From Thermoplasmata archaeon (GTDB lineage Archaea > Thermoplasmatota > Thermoplasmata > Thermoplasmatales > Thermoplasmataceae), in NCBI GenBank assembly GCA_021826795.1, contig JAKAYM010000010.1, forward strand, positions 1 to 24,126: a DNA stretch of 24,126 bases, written 5' to 3'. The position numbers and the translations under genes are program-made. The notes below the pieces were generated by a model, which had not been told where the DNA came from, did not search any database, and saw nothing but the letters and a program-made list of their open reading frames with translations. Within the stretch, counting starts at the first letter, position 1, and each line of letters starts with the position of its first letter. Shown one piece after another: positions 2,561 through 21,077 of this stretch.

Positions 2561-3199
2561 ATGTCAGCCATATTTATAGCCTCTGGATTTGCCATTACTG
2601 TTAACAGTTCAGGCAGCAGTAGTCAGGTAGTTAGAAGTCCATCATATGCTGCAACTGTAAATATTACTGAAAACGTGTTTGATGTTAACCTTAGGGAAAA
2701 GGCATTTTATAATTCAATCTATAAAAATTATTTTCAGAATCATCAGAAAAATTGCATAAGCAAGATGATAAATGCAGTTAATGCGGCAACGTTGTTCCTT
2801 AATACTATACTTGCGGTAACAGGTATATCAATACCCAACCTGTCATGGTTATTTTCAACAACACAGGAGACTAACGCAAATAAAATAAGTAATGGCTATG
2901 AAATAACAGTAAATGCAGGAAGAGTAATAAGGGCCGAAGTCAGTGTATACTGGCCATCAATCTCTTATGGTTACTGGACATTTTTATGGGGATTCATACC
3001 GGAATATCACACAAGAAATGTCTATGAATTTGGAAGCTGCTTTGATGAATACTTTGAACAAAATGAGGGTGGCACTATTAATAATCCTCATTACAATTGG
3101 ATACAGTATTCCAGTACATTCAAAATTACAGATAGTGACCTAAAGCTGACAGAATTTGAAAATGGTAAGTACGAAATTCAAATAAGTGAGGTGTTTTAA
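2561..3199 (+). CDS. Hypothetical exported protein
   Basis: I do not recognise this 212-residue protein. From the ATG at 2561 it opens with a short hydrophobic stretch (MSAIFIASGFAITV) followed by a Ser-rich segment, as in a signal peptide. The in-frame codons just upstream, 2531-2560, encode IN-KKAILGIV, which would supply the missing basic n-region and extend the hydrophobic core, so the true start may be a non-ATG codon at 2528-2533; the alternative is ATG 2561 with a weak AGGGA five bases upstream. A second hydrophobic helix is seen at about residues 66-95 (NAVNAATLFLNTILAVTGIS), then an aromatic-rich part with SVYWPSISYGYWTFLWGF at about 127-144. Two cysteines are visible (NCISK, GSCFD). 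The C-terminal third looks beta-rich. Its neighbour at 3344 is also membrane anchored, suggesting related cell-surface roles; this is inference. Confidence 0.6.
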   Translation: MSAIFIASGFAITVNSSGSSSQVVRSPSYAATVNITENVFDVNLREKAFYNSIYKNYFQNHQKNCISKMINAVNAATLFLNTILAVTGISIPNLSWLFSTTQETNANKISNGYEITVNAGRVIRAEVSVYWPSISYGYWTFLWGFIPEYHTRNVYEFGSCFDEYFEQNEGGTINNPHYNWIQYSSTFKITDSDLKLTEFENGKYEIQISEVF

Positions 3200-3343
3200 C
3201 TTGGACAATATGAAGTATACTAGAAATAGCCATGAATATATTACATCTATTTCCTCAATATCCTTATCTTTCCTTACCTCAAATAAAGAAATAATTTAAT
3301 ATTCCAGATGATAGTGTATAATCTATAAACTGGAGGTGGTTGG

Positions 3344-3916
3344 TTGATTGATAAAAAACAAAAAAAATTTATAAAAATATTAACAGTATTGATCATAATA
3401 AGTATTACTGTAGCCTATATAGGATATAATTTAAGCACAGAACCAAATAATATAAAGACGGTTAATTCTAATAATATACCCAAAATTATGGAGGAAGATC
3501 AATGCATAATGGGTAAATTCTATGATAATATTACGCAGCACGGTATCAAATCTGAATTCCTCATAATAGCACATATCCCAAACAGGTACTATCACCCTAA
3601 AGTTCAGGTATTCCTCACAATCTCGACTTATAAAATTGGGCAAAAGTTGAATTTTCCTATAAGCGATACATCAATTGTTATTAACAATATAAATATGCAC
3701 ATAAATAATAATAAAACCAGTGATACAAGCTCCACATATATTTGCAATTATTCCATAGGGCAACCTATTGGCTTCAATTTGCCCAGGTATGGAAATAATA
3801 GCATAAACTTAAGCTTCAGCATAACACCCGTTTATGAAATAAATTTCGTACATTACAGTGGTAAGGCAAAACAAGTTGATTTTAGATTCAATCTCACTGG
3901 TATAAGAACCACGTGA
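3344..3916 (+). CDS. Hypothetical membrane-anchored protein, TTG start
   Basis: I do not recognise this 190-residue protein. The start is TTG at 3344, supported by a strong GGAGGTG Shine-Dalgarno at 3332-3338 with 5-nt spacing; no ATG exists in frame near the N-terminus. Residues 1-9 are lysine-rich and are followed by one hydrophobic helix (ILTVLIIISITVAYIGY, about 12-28), giving a signal anchor with the rest outside the cell. The outer part has several N-x-S/T sequons (NIT, NKT, NYS, NLS, NLT) and beta-strand-like patterning. The architecture, short basic N-terminus, single helix ending in a tyrosine and an Asn-rich ectodomain, is like that of the proteins at 18171 and 18995, but no clear sequence identity is visible, so kinship is only a guess. 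Confidence 0.65.
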   Translation: MIDKKQKKFIKILTVLIIISITVAYIGYNLSTEPNNIKTVNSNNIPKIMEEDQCIMGKFYDNITQHGIKSEFLIIAHIPNRYYHPKVQVFLTISTYKIGQKLNFPISDTSIVINNINMHINNNKTSDTSSTYICNYSIGQPIGFNLPRYGNNSINLSFSITPVYEINFVHYSGKAKQVDFRFNLTGIRTT

Positions 3917-4044
3917 AAATAATTGTCATTATGGGAAATCTGTAATGTCTATTATATGTGTGGTTTCTGGATTTGATGCACATGCCCATGACCATAAAGT
4001 ATGAAACTTGACGTTGTATGCTGTAGCATCAGTATCCATGGAAA

Positions 4045-4052
4045 TTTATAAT
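4045..4052 (+). promoter_or_regulatory. TATA-like box for the 4074 gene
   Basis: TTTATAAT is centred 25-26 nt before the ATG at 4074, the spacing expected for a leaderless archaeal transcript, and no Shine-Dalgarno precedes that ATG. It is the main reason for choosing 4074 over upstream start codons. Confidence 0.55.
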
Positions 4053-4073
4053 ACTATTAGTCGATACTGGATT

Positions 4074-4328
4074 ATGTCTGATTATATACACAAATTAAAA
4101 TTCATGGAGGAAAAAAACCTGACTCTGGAAATAAGCTACAGGCTCAATTATGAGGATAAGGCATGTGGCTCAATAAGGATATTCTCCGGTGAGATTGATC
4201 CGGAAAAGGATAATTATGAACTTTACATGGAATTAATTGAGTGTGGGCTAACAGAAGAAGCGGTTAATAAAAGAGTTGAGAAGATGGAAGAGGAAATCAA
4301 CCAGAATAAAATAGACCTGTCGCTTTAA
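4074..4328 (+). CDS. Small acidic hypothetical protein
   Basis: I do not recognise this 84-residue protein (MSDYIHKLKFMEEKN...). The frame is open further upstream, with a TTG at 4008 and an ATG at 4038, but a TATA-like box at 4045-4052 would place the transcript start at about 4074, after both, so I take the ATG at 4074. The product has no signal peptide or membrane segment. A beta-rich middle (LTLEISYRLNYEDKACGSIR) is followed by an acidic, probably helical C-terminus with many Glu/Lys (LTEEAVNKRVEKMEEEI). It looks like a soluble cytosolic protein, unlike its exported neighbours. The membrane protein at 4364 begins 35 nt after its stop. Confidence 0.6.
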   Translation: MSDYIHKLKFMEEKNLTLEISYRLNYEDKACGSIRIFSGEIDPEKDNYELYMELIECGLTEEAVNKRVEKMEEEINQNKIDLSL

Positions 4329-4363
4329 CAAAAAACTAAATAACAATCTTAAATGTGAAATAA

Positions 4364-4882
4364 ATGATAAGCAGGAAAGTCCTGGTGGGAATTGTTCTAA
4401 TAATAGCTGGAATAGCACTGGTAATACCTGGAGTTGCGGTTATTACGTCAGAGCCATCAGGAAATACCGTAATACATTACTCAGGAGATATTTATACATC
4501 GCCTGAGTTCAATTTTACCGAAAGCAAAATTCTCATAATAGTTTCTTCTGATACATCCTCTGCAGGGCTTGTCAACTGTACAGATTTCAAAGCCGACGCC
4601 GGTAAATTTAACTCTTCCAGCATTCATAATTACACTGTACCACCTGCAAGACAGATTGATGGAGAACCCATGTATGAAAATCTTAACGGAACCTACAGGT
4701 ATGTAGTGGTTTCTGGCAGCAGACCTACATTAGACTACAATTTTATTTCGCATTCCGAAATCAGAAATGTTACAGATGCCAGTTACATAACTGCTGCGGG
4801 ATCACTTCTTACAGGTGCAGGCATAATAATTACAATGGTTACAATACTTTTCGCAAAAATAAATTCCCGGAAGCCTAGATGA
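4364..4882 (+). CDS. Hypothetical membrane protein with two terminal helices
   Basis: I do not recognise this 172-residue protein. It begins MISRKVLVGIVLIIAGIALV, a basic start plus one hydrophobic helix (about 6-28), and ends with a second helix (about 143-164, LLTGAGIIITMVTILFA) followed by the basic tail KINSRKPR. The roughly 115 residues between are hydrophilic, contain several N-x-S/T sites (NFT, NCT, NSS, NYT, NGT, NVT) and should face outward if both termini are inside. Most of that loop looks beta-rich. There is no Shine-Dalgarno; an A/T-rich CTAAATAA about 25 nt upstream could serve as TATA box. A surface-exposed hairpin-topology protein is the most that can be said. Confidence 0.65.
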   Translation: MISRKVLVGIVLIIAGIALVIPGVAVITSEPSGNTVIHYSGDIYTSPEFNFTESKILIIVSSDTSSAGLVNCTDFKADAGKFNSSSIHNYTVPPARQIDGEPMYENLNGTYRYVVVSGSRPTLDYNFISHSEIRNVTDASYITAAGSLLTGAGIIITMVTILFAKINSRKPR

Positions 4883-15535: not shown

Positions 15536-16308
15536 TTTTCCACCTCCGTATTTTTAATGTACATTCTGTATACTGCTGCTAGATCGAGGGCAAATCCGCA
15601 TGCGTCTGTGTTCTGGATCCGGTAATTGCCACCACCCCCGAGAAACCCGGAATCACCATATATCTCGAATATAGGGCCATTGTAGTAATCGGGCTGCCTC
15701 ACGGTACCGAGATCTATGATAATCCTCGGATCGTCTAATTCCTCGATTATACTGTCCAGTATTTTTATTCCACTATATCTGGTTCTTGTGCCCATGGTTT
15801 TAATGATTTCATCCTTTTCCTTGGTCCCTATTTTATCAAGTACAGAATAATCCCTATTTTTTACCGCCTTTTTTATTTCAGACCAGTGTTTGCTGTCAGA
15901 ATACATGTTAAATATCCCGGAAAGTCCGATATCAATCTTGAAGTCCGGCAATCCCAGATCATCCAGAACCTTGATTACTGTTTTTAAAATCTTGATGCTA
16001 CCGGCCATCGAATCGCCACCTATTATTTCTCCTCCTGCTTTCAGAGATTCCATCAGATTTCTGTCGGTCTGCTGTGATATGTAGAATATGGAAGAGTTAT
16101 GTTGAATTTGCCTGTCCATTAGCCTGACAGTTATATCCGGCTCCAGAACGTAGACTTCATTGCGGTAAAGAAATTTAAATCCATCAATATCCTCAGACTT
16201 TAGAAATGAAGCGGGAAAGACTTCATAAAATCCTGAGCTATAAAATGATTCTCGAACCTTACGGGCTACTTCACTTAGCTTTCTTTCCAGAGTTTTCAAG
16301 GTAACCAC
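15532..16308 (-). CDS. hisZ: ATP phosphoribosyltransferase regulatory subunit HisZ
   Basis: A paralogue of the histidyl-tRNA synthetase catalytic domain that pairs with short HisG and carries histidine feedback. In 258 residues it shows the class II fold landmarks: YEVFPASFLKSEDI, the motif-2-like VYVLEPDITVRLMDRQ, FYISQQTDR, a middle insert with DIGLSGIFNMY, and GPIFEIYGDSGFLGGGGNYR with the motif-3-like CGFALDLAAVYR. The anticodon-binding domain of HisRS is absent, and it is shorter than bacterial HisZ (about 300-390). The start is a GTG at 16308; a TTG three codons inside is an alternative. It is the first gene of the operon, and a weak CTATTAAG about 18-26 nt upstream on the minus strand (16323-16330) may be its TATA box. 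Confidence 0.9.
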   Translation of the reverse strand: MVTLKTLERKLSEVARKVRESFYSSGFYEVFPASFLKSEDIDGFKFLYRNEVYVLEPDITVRLMDRQIQHNSSIFYISQQTDRNLMESLKAGGEIIGGDSMAGSIKILKTVIKVLDDLGLPDFKIDIGLSGIFNMYSDSKHWSEIKKAVKNRDYSVLDKIGTKEKDEIIKTMGTRTRYSGIKILDSIIEELDDPRIIIDLGTVRQPDYYNGPIFEIYGDSGFLGGGGNYRIQNTDACGFALDLAAVYRMYIKNTEVEK

Positions 16309-16599
16309 GGGTGGATAGGGAACTTAATAGCATATCGTTTGTAATGCCTGTCCTCCCATGATGATGTATATGCCTAAGACTAACAGTAAATACCGAAAAG
16401 CTGGCATTAGGTTTTATATACATCTCCTTTTCCATAAAAATTGAATAATAATATAATATATAACCGTTATTGATAAAAGTTATGATGTTAATATTAATTT
16501 TGATATTAATATTTTCAATATATAAAAATTGTAGTAGTTTATATGTATATATTTAATAATGAAACAAAGATTTATATGTAGTAACTTTATATATTTATT
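16309..16599. other. AT-rich divergent promoter region between hisZ and the 16600 gene
   Basis: About 290 bases without a convincing gene. The half nearest 16600 (16420-16599) is extremely AT-rich and contains two short palindromes, TTAATATTAA (16488-16497) and ATATTAATAT (16503-16512), possibly operator-like but also expected by composition. Two TATA-like stretches, GTTTTATATAC near 16411 and TTTATATG at 16571, face the plus strand. Confidence 0.5.
16571..16578 (+). promoter_or_regulatory. TATA-like box of the secreted-protein array
   Basis: TTTATATG is centred 25-26 nt before the ATG at 16600, and no Shine-Dalgarno precedes the start, so the first gene of the array is probably read from a leaderless mRNA. 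Confidence 0.55.
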
Positions 16600-18174
16600 A
16601 TGAAGAATAAGATTAAGGTCTTATTTGCCCTGATTATCCACCTTATGATGGTATTACTCTCATATGGTAGTATTAACAGTGATTCTTCCAATAGCTACCT
16701 GTTTATTAACCCAGATCATGAAGTTAATTGCATGTGTGGAGGGGGTGGAGGAGGGTCCGGTTCAGGTGGTGGATCAGGTTCAGGCGGGTCTCCCCCTACT
16801 GCATCTATTTCAATGCAGTCATTTCCAGGTGTCTTTGGGTATGGAAAGAGATTAAAGATATGCGTGGATGTTACATCCACGGGTTCTGGAAGCGATACAA
16901 TGCATGTATTTCTTCACAAATATGAATCTAATGGTGTCACCAAATGCCAAATAGGCACAAAGACTATCGATAGTGCTGGGGAATACATAGTGTACTACAC
17001 TCCACCAGCTGGTTATTACAATTCCCCATACATATCAGCATATATATGCAATTCATGGGGTGTTTCATGTCCAGTAGTGTTTACACATTCATTTTATGTA
17101 GCAAAGGCATTGTATTCCTCCATAGGCTATGACGGGAATGATACTATTTATCTATCTAACACATGCCAGCCCACAGAAAGCATATACGGAAACATCAACC
17201 TCCCTGGTGCCAACAAGTCCAGCACACCTTCAAGCGATGTATGCCCAAATGTCATTATCGGCAATGAATCCTATACAGAATTTGAAAGTGGAAGCAAGCT
17301 TATCATTGAGGTAAATGTAGGTGAAACCGGTGCAGGGAAGATTGATTGTATAAGGGAGGTAACGAATGGCGGTGATATATGCGCATCTTCATACCCTGAT
17401 AAAATGACATTCTCCATAGAGATGTCAGGCAATGGCCCTGAGGTAGACATGCTCAAACACAATGGAAACGGATATGGGATGAACATAACATCCGATGGCA
17501 AGGCATTAAAGGAGAGTAACGATATTGCATCCCTTATGCTGGACGGCATGTCCCTTCTTCCTGTCGCTGGCTATGCAGTTACAGCCTATGAAGCATCAAT
17601 GACAGCATACAACCTTATACACTGCCTAACATCAAAGGATACATCATGCAGCAACAATGAGGCAGGTGTAACATTCCACATAAAAGGCGGGAATTACTCC
17701 ACATCTGATAAATGCAGCTATGTAAAATCCGGACAGAATGTATACTCAGCTGGCACCTGTGCATACATATGCATTCCTAATTCAGACCTTTCTGTGAACA
17801 GGACACTGACACTGACATACCAGAATTACTATGTGCAGGGGTCCAGCGCGCCGGGGTTAAAGGCAGGTGCAGAGGCAAAAGAGACGATAAATGCTGTTAC
17901 AGCATCTGCTATATACGGCCATGTTGATTATACAGGCACACATAATGTAGACAGGGTCAATAACAGGCACGTGTACATAAAGGATACAGAAAATGGCGAA
18001 TACTACCAGGTTCCAATAGTCAATGGACATTACCTTTTCTATGCAGAACCTGGAACTGAATATTCAATATATACACATTCATCAAAAAAACTTAACAAAT
18101 TAACAACAATTAATGGGAGTGAACTGAAGGATGGAGGCAGTAAACGTTATGTAATAAATAGTGACGACTTATGA
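16600..18174 (+). CDS. Cysteine-rich secreted protein with Gly/Ser linker and C-terminal beta domain
   Basis: I do not recognise this 524-residue protein. Visible parts are: a signal peptide (KNKIKVLFALIIHLMMVLLS, 2-21); a Cys-Met-Cys pair at 44-46 followed directly by a Gly/Ser linker (47-64); a large beta-rich region (about 65-300); a hydrophobic helical stretch at about 308-341 (ASLMLDGMSLLPVAGYAVTA is its core); a further Cys-rich part; and a C-terminal domain (437-524) starting AIYGHVDYTG and containing NGHYLFYAEPGTEYSIY, which resembles carboxypeptidase-regulatory-like beta-sandwiches. Fifteen cysteines and several N-x-S/T sites point to an exported, disulfide-bonded glycoprotein. The last residues (KRYVINSDDL) and part of the C-terminal domain are shared with the next gene, which it overlaps by ATGA. 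A surface or adhesive role is a guess. Confidence 0.7.
   Translation: MKNKIKVLFALIIHLMMVLLSYGSINSDSSNSYLFINPDHEVNCMCGGGGGGSGSGGGSGSGGSPPTASISMQSFPGVFGYGKRLKICVDVTSTGSGSDTMHVFLHKYESNGVTKCQIGTKTIDSAGEYIVYYTPPAGYYNSPYISAYICNSWGVSCPVVFTHSFYVAKALYSSIGYDGNDTIYLSNTCQPTESIYGNINLPGANKSSTPSSDVCPNVIIGNESYTEFESGSKLIIEVNVGETGAGKIDCIREVTNGGDICASSYPDKMTFSIEMSGNGPEVDMLKHNGNGYGMNITSDGKALKESNDIASLMLDGMSLLPVAGYAVTAYEASMTAYNLIHCLTSKDTSCSNNEAGVTFHIKGGNYSTSDKCSYVKSGQNVYSAGTCAYICIPNSDLSVNRTLTLTYQNYYVQGSSAPGLKAGAEAKETINAVTASAIYGHVDYTGTHNVDRVNNRHVYIKDTENGEYYQVPIVNGHYLFYAEPGTEYSIYTHSSKKLNKLTTINGSELKDGGSKRYVINSDDL
17912..17939 (+). repeat. 28-bp direct repeat, copy A, in the C-terminal domain
   Basis: Identical to 18739-18766 in the next gene (827 bp downstream). 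It encodes the YGHVDYTGT start of the C-terminal domain in both proteins. The flanks are divergent, so this is an isolated patch of identity. Confidence 0.8.
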
Positions 18175-18262
18175 CTCTTAAAAAATCATATAAAATAATA
18201 ATTTCGATAATAATAGCAGTAATATTAATCTCCACTGCAGTAATATACTTCTATCCACATAA
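18137..18262 (+). repeat. 126-bp near-identical repeat, copy 1, at a gene junction
   Basis: Matches 18961-19086 at 125 of 126 positions, offset 824 bp. It covers the last 12 codons of the upstream gene, the ATGA overlap and the first 31 codons of the downstream gene. The one mismatch changes Tyr7 to Asn7 in the downstream products. Confidence 0.95.
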
Positions 18263-18998
18263 TGATACACAGTACTACAATGAAGGAAAGAACATAGATT
18301 TAAAATATTCTCCTGTGCACATGTGTGATGTTGGGTACCATTGTGGCAAATACCCTCTGTCATCATATTCAATTGATAATGGAAAACAGTCCTATCTAAA
18401 TTCTACATTATTGGCATGCAGGTACAACGATTTTGCTAAACCAGAACCATATAATTACCATTTTTCCCTGAACATAATAACACACAACCTGAAATCAAAC
18501 AAAATAAATATAATTCTGCAGGACAGAAAAGCATATGGATTTATTAATTATAAAAATACTGAATACTGTTACAATGAAAAATTGGGAAGGATAGAGGTAA
18601 ATGCAAAAAATACAGGGAATATAAGTGTGGTAGGGTTGGTATATAATTTCAATGCCACAAACTGCAATATTAATCTAGAGGTATCATCAGGGAAATTGAC
18701 AAATACATACTACATAACAACACAGGTACAGAGTGCATTATACGGCCATGTTGATTATACAGGCACTGGAAACATAGACAGGGTAAATGGTGAGTTTATT
18801 ATAGAAAACGAAAACAATTCACATATGAATATAGTAAATGTACATAATGGATACTATTATTATTTTGTACATCCTGATACTGCATATACACTGTATTCAC
18901 TGAACAATGGCACTTTGAAGGAAATAGGGACAATAGGCAATAGAACAATATCGAGTGGAAGCAGTAAACGTTATGTAATAAATAGTGACGACTTATGA
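18171..18998 (+). CDS. Membrane-anchored ectodomain protein, second gene of the array
   Basis: I do not recognise this 275-residue protein. It has a basic N-terminus, one hydrophobic helix (about 8-28, IIISIIIAVILISTAVIYF), and an ectodomain of about 245 residues with five cysteines (52, 58, 83, 133, 165) and numerous Asn-x-Ser/Thr sites. Residues 188-275 form a C-terminal domain like that of the upstream gene (ALYGHVDYTGTGNIDRVN, then NGYYYYFVHPDTAYTLYS) and end in the same KRYVINSDDL. Residues 1-30 differ from the next protein at one position only, while the region from about 45 to 170 is unlike it. It starts within an ATGA overlap and ends in another, so translation of all three genes is coupled. 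Its function is unknown; a secreted or surface complex with its neighbours is inferred. Confidence 0.7.
   Translation: MTLKKSYKIIISIIIAVILISTAVIYFYPHNDTQYYNEGKNIDLKYSPVHMCDVGYHCGKYPLSSYSIDNGKQSYLNSTLLACRYNDFAKPEPYNYHFSLNIITHNLKSNKINIILQDRKAYGFINYKNTEYCYNEKLGRIEVNAKNTGNISVVGLVYNFNATNCNINLEVSSGKLTNTYYITTQVQSALYGHVDYTGTGNIDRVNGEFIIENENNSHMNIVNVHNGYYYYFVHPDTAYTLYSLNNGTLKEIGTIGNRTISSGSSKRYVINSDDL
18739..18766 (+). repeat. 28-bp direct repeat, copy B, in the C-terminal domain
   Basis: Second copy of the 17912-17939 sequence, perfectly conserved and encoding the same YGHVDYTGT peptide. Confidence 0.8.
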
Positions 18999-19086
18999 CT
19001 CTTAAAAAATCAAATAAAATAATAATTTCGATAATAATAGCAGTAATATTAATCTCCACTGCAGTAATATACTTCTATCCACATAA
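18961..19086 (+). repeat. 126-bp near-identical repeat, copy 2, at a gene junction
   Basis: Partner of 18137-18262. The 824-bp offset equals the start-to-start distance of the two genes, so the unit of duplication was one whole gene. Confidence 0.95.
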
Positions 19087-19849
19087 CAGTACAGAGTACT
19101 ACAACAATGGAAGAAGCATTACATTAAAGTATTTCAATAAGGACCCTGCCCTGCTAAAACACAATCATTACCATGTATCATCATACTATGATAATGGTAA
19201 ATTTGTTTACCTTAATACAAGTGTTGATCCTTTAGCCTATAATGAGTCAGGATATTTCTCATGTGCATGCATGCCTGTAAACCTGACAGGCAGTACAGTA
19301 AATGCAAAATATGTATATGTTACAGTTACAGGGAAAGATACATGTGTTATTTACGGCCATTACAACGGTACAATAAAACAGACATGCACTGTAAACCGTA
19401 ATACTGCTAGGCTGAACTACAGCAGCAGCATGTGCTTTATTGTAAAGGTTATTGGAATAGACGGGTATTTAAATGACAATTATTACAATTTTACTGTTAA
19501 GATATCTGCCGGTAAGCTGTATAATGTATACTATATTGACACTGTTCAGGAGAGTGCTGTATACGGTTTTGTAAATGAAACAGGTACAACAGGTGCTGAT
19601 CCAGGATTGAATAGTGAATTCTTTGCATATGACATGAATAATTCCAGGATATATGATATTAATATAACAAATGGCTATTATTATTTATTTACAGTTCCTG
19701 GAAATGAGTATGAATTCTATTCGTATTATAATAATACAATGAATAAAATATTTATAAACAATTCAACAGAGCATAATATCTACACTATGAATGCCCCTGA
19801 GGGGTCTATGTTTACAAATGTATATCTTAATACCCTGCTGGGTAAATAA
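18995..19849 (+). CDS. Membrane-anchored ectodomain protein, third gene of the array
   Basis: This 284-residue paralogue of the preceding protein begins with the same basic segment and hydrophobic helix (29 of the first 30 residues identical). Its ectodomain differs strongly after about residue 45 but again has five cysteines (90, 92, 117, 131, 147) and more than ten N-x-S/T sites. Similarity returns at about 170-195 (SAGKLYNVYYIDT, then SAVYGFVNETGT), the start of the C-terminal domain, and at NGYYYLFTVPGNEYEFYS. The extreme C-terminus (VYLNTLLGK) does not carry the KRYVINSDDL ending. It starts in the ATGA overlap with the previous stop. The function is unknown. Confidence 0.7.
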   Translation: MTLKKSNKIIISIIIAVILISTAVIYFYPHNSTEYYNNGRSITLKYFNKDPALLKHNHYHVSSYYDNGKFVYLNTSVDPLAYNESGYFSCACMPVNLTGSTVNAKYVYVTVTGKDTCVIYGHYNGTIKQTCTVNRNTARLNYSSSMCFIVKVIGIDGYLNDNYYNFTVKISAGKLYNVYYIDTVQESAVYGFVNETGTTGADPGLNSEFFAYDMNNSRIYDINITNGYYYLFTVPGNEYEFYSYYNNTMNKIFINNSTEHNIYTMNAPEGSMFTNVYLNTLLGK

Positions 19850-19865
19850 ATATTAAGGCGTTAAT

Positions 19866-20030
19866 GTGAATATTAAATCCCATTACAAAATAATAATTTC
19901 GATTATAATTGTGGTAATATTAGTCTCATCTGTAGTTATATACTTCTATCCCCATAACAGTACAGAGTACTACAACAATGGAAAGAGTGTTGATGTAAGG
20001 TACTTCAGCAGTAATTGTACGATTCGATAA
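19866..20030 (+). pseudogene. Truncated further copy of the array's membrane-anchor gene
   Basis: From GTG 19866 the frame encodes 54 residues: a basic start, the hydrophobic helix (KIIISIIIVVILVSSVVIYF) and YPHNSTEYYNNGKSVDVRYF, clearly homologous to the first 47 residues of the two preceding proteins, then six unrelated residues and a stop. Bases 19953-19983 are identical to 19082-19112. The copy ends 6 bp from the 3' end of the convergent gene at 20037, so a deletion probably removed its ectodomain. There is only a weak AAGG-like site before the GTG. A functional single-pass micropeptide cannot be excluded. Confidence 0.75.
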
Positions 20031-20036
20031 AATAAA

Positions 20037-21077
20037 TTAATGGGCTCCGGGAGGAAAAACTATATCGTCGAACTTTCTGTAGTTTTCCTCATCAAATCTC
20101 AATAAATCAGGATTGATATTATTTTCAACGGCCAGATAGTATGCCAGATAATATAGGGGTACAATGTTCAACAGGGCATTGAGATATTCGTCTCCTAAAT
20201 CTGCTACATCAACGTGGTAATCACCTTCCCCATTAATTGTAAGTGTTTTTGTCCCCACAACCTTGCATGCCTTTACTATATCCATTGAACGGTTTTCCAC
20301 TGTTCTAGAGTTGATTATTATAACAAGTGACTTTTCATCTATAAGTGATGTGCAGCCGTGAATGAATTCTTCAAGCTCGATTCCTTCGGCATGTATATGG
20401 GTAGCCTCCTTTATCTTCTGTGCTGCTTCCCTTGCCACAGGTTCCTCCGGTCCCGCACCTAGTACAAATATCCTGTTTACATGTGCAAGTTCATGGGCAA
20501 GCTTTCTTATCTTCGAATCCATTGATACGATCAGGTCCTTAACAGCTCCCATTACAGCGTTAATATCAACCGGAAGATGAGAATACTGCGATCCTATGTA
20601 CATTGCCGCTATTGCATTATCAAAAAATGACTTGGTGTTGCAGAGAGATTTATCATCAGAATCGATTACGATGCTTTTATCTGAGATGTGTTCCATTGGT
20701 GTTCCATGATAATGTGTTATCCCTGCTATATATGCAAATTTTTTCTGATATACCAGTGAGTCTATAGTGGATTTTGTTTTCCCGCTGTTCGATATACCTA
20801 CAACTGTGCCATGCACCGGCATATAATAATTTAATAGTTCAAAGGACTGCACAAATGAATATTTTAAATCGGATTTATAAAGAAATCCTGTCCCTATTTG
20901 TGCAGCGTGGTACGCAGTACCGTTGCCTGTGAACAACAATGGCCTGTTAAGCAGAAATGAATAATCCAGATTTTCCATAGTCTTTTTAGTTATGTTCAGC
21001 GAATCCGGGGTTTCTCTCATCATATCATACATAAAATATGGATGTTTTACCCTTTTTTCAGGTACTGTATCTGTCAT
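20037..21077 (-). CDS. Two-SIS-domain sugar-phosphate isomerase-like protein
   Basis: This 346-residue protein has two SIS domains and resembles the isomerase half of glucosamine-6-phosphate synthase (GlmS), without the glutaminase domain. The first SIS (about 45-165) has LLFTGNGTAYHAAQIG and GISNSGKTKSTID, the phosphosugar-binding serine motif. The second (about 195-320) has RIFVLGAGPEEPVAREAAQK, then EGIELEEFIHGCTSLIDE, matching the GlmS E-x-x-H-G block (Glu232-His240 region). The end, NNINPDLLRF, corresponds to the GlmS G-x-NPDxPR tail. Candidate reactions are amino-sugar-phosphate deamination or isomerisation (GlmS-like, AgaS or NagB-II type); the exact substrate cannot be read from sequence. 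It is convergent with the truncated array gene and divergent from the esterase. Confidence 0.85.
   Translation of the reverse strand: MTDTVPEKRVKHPYFMYDMMRETPDSLNITKKTMENLDYSFLLNRPLLFTGNGTAYHAAQIGTGFLYKSDLKYSFVQSFELLNYYMPVHGTVVGISNSGKTKSTIDSLVYQKKFAYIAGITHYHGTPMEHISDKSIVIDSDDKSLCNTKSFFDNAIAAMYIGSQYSHLPVDINAVMGAVKDLIVSMDSKIRKLAHELAHVNRIFVLGAGPEEPVAREAAQKIKEATHIHAEGIELEEFIHGCTSLIDEKSLVIIINSRTVENRSMDIVKACKVVGTKTLTINGEGDYHVDVADLGDEYLNALLNIVPLYYLAYYLAVENNINPDLLRFDEENYRKFDDIVFPPGAH

What the first reader, a model, noticed from the sequence alone, without database searches (positions are those of the whole stretch)
16600..20030. Translationally coupled array of secreted and membrane-anchored paralogues with constant ends and variable middles
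Three genes are joined by 4-nt ATGA overlaps and followed by a truncated copy. Proteins two and three share 29 of their first 30 residues; proteins one and two share the last residues KRYVINSDDL and parts of the C-terminal domain; the central ectodomains are strongly divergent, though both anchored proteins keep five cysteines. The pattern looks like a cassette system in which anchor and C-terminal module are held constant while the exposed part changes. Conserved overlap implies coordinated amounts, perhaps a surface complex with the 15-Cys lead protein. I know of no named system with this layout.
Basis: partly seen in the sequence, partly recalled or inferred. Interest (0 to 1): 0.75.

Follow-up and report, generated by a model that had tools for sequence, protein, structure and literature searches.

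The report
Shuffled surface-protein gene arrays in Ferroplasma
In wall-less acid-loving archaea, short runs of genes for secreted and membrane-anchored proteins have swapped their outer parts by recombination at a few fixed points, which looks like a way of changing the cell surface.

Summary
In detail: three genes with two ATGA overlaps, a near-identical 126-nt block across both gene junctions, a truncated fourth copy, 15/5/5 cysteines. The anchor is near-constant, but the C-terminal module is not: 24% identical in proteins 2 and 3. Among 63 non-redundant relatives there are 25 ectodomain types, 26 C-module types and 52 combinations, with 19 four-gamete quartets; 138 of 184 strong change points lie at or beside the SAGKL...ESAVYG linker. 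The lead is mosaic too. A sharp chimera in a genome of the size of the F. acidiphilum Y(T) isolate argues against assembly artefact. Arrays lie at several loci; the window's locus holds only a decayed remnant in two related genomes. Noticed and tested on the same nine arrays: lead and gene 2 carry type-matched C-module starts (0.74 within, 0.31 between; 0 of 50,000 permutations); gene 2 and gene 3 do not (287 of 720). Best reading: recombination-shuffled surface proteins. Purpose (virus evasion, or recognition by the matched pair) is untested. Eight paper searches listed no description.

The parts
16571..16578 (+). TATA-like box (TTTATATG) about 29 nt before the lead ATG; suggests a leaderless transcript
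   Evidence: read by eye from the sequence; inference
16600..18174 (+). lead gene, secreted protein, 524 aa, 15 Cys, Gly-rich linker at about residues 47-63, hydrophobic hairpin SLMLDGMSLLPVAGYAVTA
17920..18171 (+). C-module of the lead (residues 441-524), DYTGT type
17912..17939 (+). 28-nt tract identical to gene 2 (18739-18766) at the start of the C-module (TATACGG...)
18137..18262 (+). constant junction block, copy 1 (end of lead, start of gene 2)
18171..18998 (+). gene 2, signal-anchored protein, 275 aa, 5 Cys
18747..18995 (+). C-module of gene 2 (residues 193-275), same DYTGT type as the lead
18961..19086 (+). constant junction block, copy 2 (end of gene 2, start of gene 3)
18995..19849 (+). 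gene 3, signal-anchored protein, 284 aa, 5 Cys
19568..19846 (+). C-module of gene 3 (residues 192-284), NETGTTG type, not that of gene 2
19866..20030 (+). truncated fourth copy (anchor and 23 further codons, then stop); a stub like those that end most arrays

Best explanation
The array encodes exported proteins of a mosaic family of Ferroplasma-like archaea: a secreted lead and signal-anchored proteins made of an Ig-like ectodomain and a distal CarboxypepD_reg/CnaB-like beta-sandwich (C-module). Diversity arises by recombination between family members at conserved blocks: the anchor and gene junction, the SAGKL...ESAVYG linker and, in the lead, the GYDGN..IYLS motif. A crossover exchanges an ectodomain, a lead core, or a C-module together with the following gene junction. 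The truncated last copy is what is left of a further unit and keeps the downstream homology. Shown: mosaicism, preferred breakpoints, presence at several loci, loss at this locus in relatives, matched lead/gene 2 modules. Inferred: homologous recombination by the host's own enzymes (RadA/RadB type), translational coupling, surface exposure. Most likely use: changing what viruses or neighbouring cells meet on a cell without a wall.
For: Ectodomain and C-module identities are uncorrelated; 54 of 116 pairs with ectodomain >=85% have C-module <=45%, and 43 of 94 the other way round (76 proteins, duplicates not removed). 63 non-redundant proteins: 184 of 1,953 pairs have a strong single change point, 138 of them in residues 160-199; 19 four-gamete quartets. 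In G063 (contig length 1,826,943, = genome size of the F. acidiphilum Y(T) isolate) genes 2 and 3 are identical over about 550 nt and fall to 55-63% at the C-module; protein ectodomain 100%, C-module 33%. In G069 (a single-contig MAG) two leads are 90-100% identical from about 510 bp upstream to about codon 175 and then about 40%. Near-identical proteins differ in blocks: P0001/P0034 only in residues 48-65 and 495-520; P0044/P0045 identical to 330. Model of protein 3: helix 3-27, beta 40-185, beta 187-277, pLDDT 77.8; most first Foldseek hits are two-domain Gram-positive pilins. 7 of 9 array-bearing contigs of fragmented assemblies end within 626 bp of the array, as expected of a region that is repeated or varies between strains.
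Confidence: 0.7

Rival explanations
1. Ordinary tandem duplication followed by divergence; the constant ends are simply the slow parts.
For: The genes are paralogues in tandem; G044 genes 2 and 3 look like a fairly recent duplicate.
Against: Divergence is stepwise and the parts are uncorrelated; identical ectodomains carry unrelated C-modules. The junction DNA of genes 2 and 3 differs at 1 of 126 nt, while ectodomain and C-module are 22% and 24% identical.
Confidence: 0.07
2. The mosaics are assembly chimeras made at shared conserved blocks in metagenomes.
For: Most proteins are from ENA/JGI sources, many on short contigs; arrays break assemblies. G069 itself is labelled a MAG.
Against: Within-genome chimera in G063, which has the size of the F. 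acidiphilum Y(T) isolate genome; two leads and C-modules of single-contig G069. The window and G069 also differ as mosaics.
Confidence: 0.1
3. The lead and gene 2 form a specificity-matched pair (secreted or displayed ligand and anchored partner), used in self-recognition; shuffling then creates new specificities.
For: Lead and gene 2 C-module starts (22 residues) match within 9 arrays: 0.74 against 0.31, 0 of 50,000 permutations; one array per type 1 of 720; without the two whole-module copies 4 of 5,040. Controls in six arrays: gene 2/gene 3 287 of 720, lead/gene 3 135 of 720. Two genomes with two arrays each match own, not cross. A two-gene core is also in the genome of the size of C. divulgatum S5.
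Against: The pattern was noticed in these arrays and tested on them. Local gene conversion alone could copy the tracts: about 20-75 nt (or whole modules) of high identity beginning at or just before TATACGG. 9 arrays, 6 types by eye; with 4 types (whole-module copies left out) the starts reach 1 of 24, the minimum, and the tails only 3 of 24. The own partner is the single best match in 5 of 9 for the starts and 3 of 9 for whole modules.
Confidence: 0.22
4. Polymorphic-toxin-like system: the lead is an effector with exchangeable tip and gene 2 its cognate protection.
For: Exchangeable C-terminus followed by a type-matched gene; a hydrophobic hairpin is present in leads with otherwise different cores.
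Against: Lead tip and gene 2 tip are the same domain (hhalign E 2.4e-20), unlike the usual unrelated toxin/immunity pairs (recalled); no toxin or defence family hit for the window proteins; such systems are reported as absent in most archaeal lineages (PMC3482391, passages).
Confidence: 0.06
5. Diversity-generating retroelement (targeted mutation) makes the variation.
For: Variable exposed ends of surface proteins.
Against: Reverse transcriptase (PF00078) in 2 of 9 array genomes and in none of the single-contig ones G062, G063, G069; variation is by blocks, not scattered sites.
Confidence: 0.01

Closest known systems
Antigenic variation by segmental gene conversion (VlsE of Borrelia, PilE of Neisseria, Msp2/P44 of Anaplasma; from recall and the listings)
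   Same: Surface protein genes exchange segments between homologous copies, with conserved flanks
   Different: No single expression site plus silent cassettes seen; intact co-directional genes; lead and anchored genes share modules; a free-living archaeon with no immune host
TgrB1/TgrC1 allorecognition pair of Dictyostelium (PMC12324515, abstract read)
   Same: Polymorphic pair of surface-protein genes in a rearranging, recombining locus
   Different: No homology claimed or tested; recognition not tested here; matching here is between homologous C-modules of a secreted and an anchored protein
Polymorphic toxin systems (PMC3482391, passages read)
   Same: 3' end of a long exported protein is exchanged by recombination and followed by a matched gene
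   Different: Exchanged tip looks like a CarboxypepD_reg domain, no toxin domain found, partner carries the same domain
Divergent surface glycoproteins of Haloquadratum walsbyi (PMC3119063, passages read)
   Same: Archaeal surface proteins replaced in a conserved context, virus evasion proposed there
   Different: There long deletion-coupled insertions and giant or S-layer proteins; here exchanges at domain borders in a short array
Gram-positive pilins and MSCRAMM adhesins (Ig-like plus CnaB domains)
   Same: Two-domain arrangement by fold comparison
   Different: No sequence match in the PDB; signal anchor at the N-terminus instead of a sortase motif (recalled feature)

Membership tests
Recombination-driven surface antigen variation | Mosaic alleles with breakpoints in conserved blocks | tested here: met
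Recombination-driven surface antigen variation | Donor copies elsewhere in the same genome | tested here: inconclusive
   G069 and G002 each have two arrays; no silent donor set found; the window's own genome is not held
Recombination-driven surface antigen variation | Switching within a clone | not testable with these tools
   needs culture and long reads
Recombination-driven surface antigen variation | Surface location | tested here: inconclusive
   N-terminal helix 3-27 in the model reads as a signal anchor; no experiment
CarboxypepD_reg (PF13620) domain, C-module | Profile match above cut-off | tested here: inconclusive
   window proteins: no hit; the distant lead of G094 46.3 bits against 32.3 over a stretch that lies inside its match to the lead profile
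Diversity-generating retroelement | Reverse transcriptase in the genome | tested here: not met
   no match in 7 of 9 array genomes, among them three single-contig ones
Polymorphic toxin system | Recognisable toxin domain at the exchanged C-terminus | tested here: not met
   C-module aligns with that of the anchored family
Allorecognition pair (Tgr-like) | Matched variability of neighbouring partner genes | tested here: inconclusive
   matched in 9 arrays by permutation, but noticed on the same arrays and gene conversion not excluded
Allorecognition pair (Tgr-like) | Specific binding of own type | not testable with these tools
   needs binding assay

The most novel reading that the evidence does not exclude
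An archaeal self-recognition system: a secreted or membrane-associated lead and the next, anchored protein dock through C-modules of the same type, recombination keeps making new matched types, and extra anchored genes (gene 3) carry further specificities; the trailing stub is a retained homology arm that lets the last C-module be exchanged.
Probability: 0.18. Interest if true: 0.9.

Novelty: new variant of a known kind. Interest (0 to 1): 0.7.

Why it matters
Block-wise, domain-border shuffling of surface proteins is well known from pathogens facing antibodies. Finding it in wall-less acidophilic archaea points to other pressures (viruses, neighbours), gives a marker for strain variation in mine-drainage communities, and offers a cultivable species (F. 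acidiphilum) in which the rate and use of shuffling can be measured. The matching of lead and gene 2 makes a specific docking hypothesis testable.
Full report
WHAT IS THERE. Between a his operon (minus strand, hisZ starting at 16308) and a SIS-domain gene (20037-21077, minus) lie three plus-strand genes: lead 16600-18174, gene 2 18171-18998, gene 3 18995-19849, joined by two ATGA overlaps, and 16 nt later a GTG-started truncated copy of 54 codons (his and SIS names are mine from the sequences). The start of gene 3 repeats the start of gene 2 together with the end of the gene before it: 34 nt upstream identical, then 1 mismatch in 92 nt. So the conserved block is a gene junction, not only an anchor. 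Outside it proteins 2 and 3 are 22% (ectodomain) and 24% (C-module) identical.

RELATIVES. Protein 3 finds 31 relatives (one is the window's protein 2), the profile of 32 sequences 69, the lead 19 (only the 7,986 candidates sharing most words were scored), among 5.8 billion proteins; those with an organism name are Ferroplasma or Candidatus Thermoplasmatota. The anchored profile matches 11 of 117 genomes of the order; in G061 and G094 it meets only the C-module of a lead, so 9 of 117 hold an anchored gene, fragment or stub. The lead profile matches 20 of 400 genomes of the class, many only in part. Array layout (lead of about 510-700 aa, one or two anchored genes of 258-295 aa) is the same in window, G069 (two arrays), G063, G065, G062, G044 and G002 (two arrays, one lead cut by the contig end). 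G063 has the contig length of the F. acidiphilum Y(T) genome, 1,826,943 bp (PMC5473848, passages); G050 that of C. divulgatum S5, 1,938,699 (PMC5155288, table passage). G069 is labelled a MAG of Ferroplasma sp.. In G050 a lead is followed after 24 nt by a 329-aa protein that aligns with the anchored family (hhalign E 5.8e-5, probability only 65.5), so the two-gene core may be older than the Ferroplasma arrays. The partners in G061 and G094 could not be shown to be homologous.

MOSAICISM. 83 family proteins were collected and 76 of 225-310 aa used; 7 shorter ones were dropped. Over 2,850 pairs, duplicates included, ectodomain and C-module identity are uncorrelated (Spearman -0.02). Of 116 pairs with ectodomain >=85%, 54 have C-module <=45%; of 94 pairs with C-module >=85%, 43 have ectodomain <=45%. 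After removal of sequences >=97% alike, 63 remain: 25 ectodomain and 26 C-module types at 70% single linkage, 52 combinations, 19 quartets in which all four combinations of two ectodomain and two C-module types exist. Of 1,953 pairs 184 show one strong change point; 72 fall in residues 192-199, right after SAVYG, 138 in 160-199, and 46 elsewhere, 22 of these at 208-215 and 10 at 230-249. The anchor was left out of that scan, and pairs share sequences, so these are not independent events.

NOT ONLY ASSEMBLY ARTEFACT. In G063 genes 2 and 3 are identical at DNA level over about 550 nt and fall to 55-63% and then lower after the linker; ectodomain and linker 100%, C-module 33% in protein. In single-contig G069 the two leads are 90-100% identical from about 510 bp upstream to about codon 175 (GYDGN) and about 40% beyond, until gene 2 begins. 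Window protein 3 pairs with one G069 gene over the ectodomain and with its neighbour over the C-module and the following spacer; window protein 2 shares its C-module and ATGA junction with a G069 gene of another ectodomain. Block differences between near-identical proteins: P0001/P0034 residues 48-65 and 495-520 only; P0003/P0005 residues 2-87 plus two; P0006/P0010 identical from 4 to 189, then replaced. Seven of nine array-bearing contigs of fragmented assemblies end within 0-626 bp of the array; the contig with only a stub (G002:C19) was left out of this count and does not.

LOCUS HISTORY. Arrays sit at several loci: his-SIS in the window, between a membrane gene and purB in G063, others elsewhere; in the flanks fetched only G062/G064 and G069b/G066 share a place. 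At the his-SIS interval G069 and G002 have no array but a decayed anchor remnant, preceded by a reading-frame end, chosen by eye, that matches the tail of lead P0038 (0 and 1 of 300 shuffles reach its score). They look like deletion remnants. In G063 and G062 no anchor matched there at E 0.01. Of 11 arrays with a readable 3' end (window, G069a, G069b, G063, G065, G062, G064, G044, G002a, G002b, G066), 10 end in a truncated next copy of 12 to 67 codons or a frame-shifted one, G002a does not (counted by eye; G062 and G064 are the same locus). Deletion debris or a retained homology arm would both fit.

MATCHED PAIR. In the nine arrays with lead and gene 2 readable, the C-module of the lead looks to be of the same type as that of gene 2 (by eye). 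The pattern, and the choice of 22 first and 20 last residues, came from looking at these same arrays. First 22 residues: 0.74 within arrays, 0.31 between, 0 of 50,000 permutations; one array per type 1 of 720; leaving out G063 and G044, whose (nearly) whole module is copied, 4 of 5,040; four types only, 1 of 24, the minimum. Last 20 residues: 0 of 50,000, 3 of 720, 10 of 5,040, 3 of 24. The six arrays with a gene 3 give, for the first 22 residues, 2 of 720 for lead/gene 2, 287 of 720 for gene 2/gene 3 and 135 of 720 for lead/gene 3. G069: own 0.45 and 0.95, cross 0.23; G002: own 0.41 and 0.59, cross 0.27. The own partner is the single best match in 5 of 9 for the starts and 3 of 9 for whole modules; several arrays share a type. 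At DNA level the shared tracts begin at or just before TATACGG and run about 20-75 nt, with some mismatches, or the whole module. This is what recent conversion would give; that it joins lead and gene 2 and not gene 2 and gene 3 is what a docking constraint would give. The data do not separate the two. A tenth pair (P0038/P0058, placed on one 2,588-nt contig by length) matches at the tail only; P0039/P0055, perhaps on one contig, do not visibly match; P0035/P0009, perhaps on one contig, match at the tail by eye.

HOW IT PROBABLY WORKS. One transcript from a TATA-like box next to the lead start, coupled translation (inference), export of lead and anchored proteins. Recombination between copies, of the same or another cell, crosses over in anchor/junction, linker or GYDGN block, giving new combinations. 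Ferroplasma recombines readily: high recombination is reported for types I and II and mosaic genomes for type II (PMC2704941, passages), and RadA/RadB are annotated in Y(T) (PMC5473848). A retroelement is not a general cause. The pressure is unknown; virus evasion is the default, recognition of own type the bold reading.

Noticed in passing
L052:1175-3634: A distant lead homologue in G094 carries two CarboxypepD_reg stretches and ends in a stretch starting CVNGTTEILLANG that looks to me like a Hint (autoprocessing) domain; Pfam did not call it at E 0.1.
   Followed up: partly
window 2561-4882: Further exported or membrane proteins of unknown function (2561-3199, 3344-3916, 4364-4882) between purL and purB, the place where G063 carries its array beside a homologue of the third.
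   Followed up: partly
L062:7666-8181 and L063:8210-8725: About 510 bp before both leads of G069 are almost identical and read, in reverse, like a fragment of an unrelated protein; possible remnant of a mobile element.
   Followed up: no
leads P0034-P0052: A hydrophobic hairpin around P[VYG][AYL]GY is kept in leads whose cores are otherwise unlike; it may insert into or lie on a membrane.
   Followed up: partly
window 18171-19849: Genes 2 and 3 have 31-32% G+C against 42% for the lead and 41% for the gad-his region.
   Followed up: no
window 16600-19849: 7, 7 and 13 N-glycosylation sequons in proteins 1, 2 and 3.
   Followed up: no
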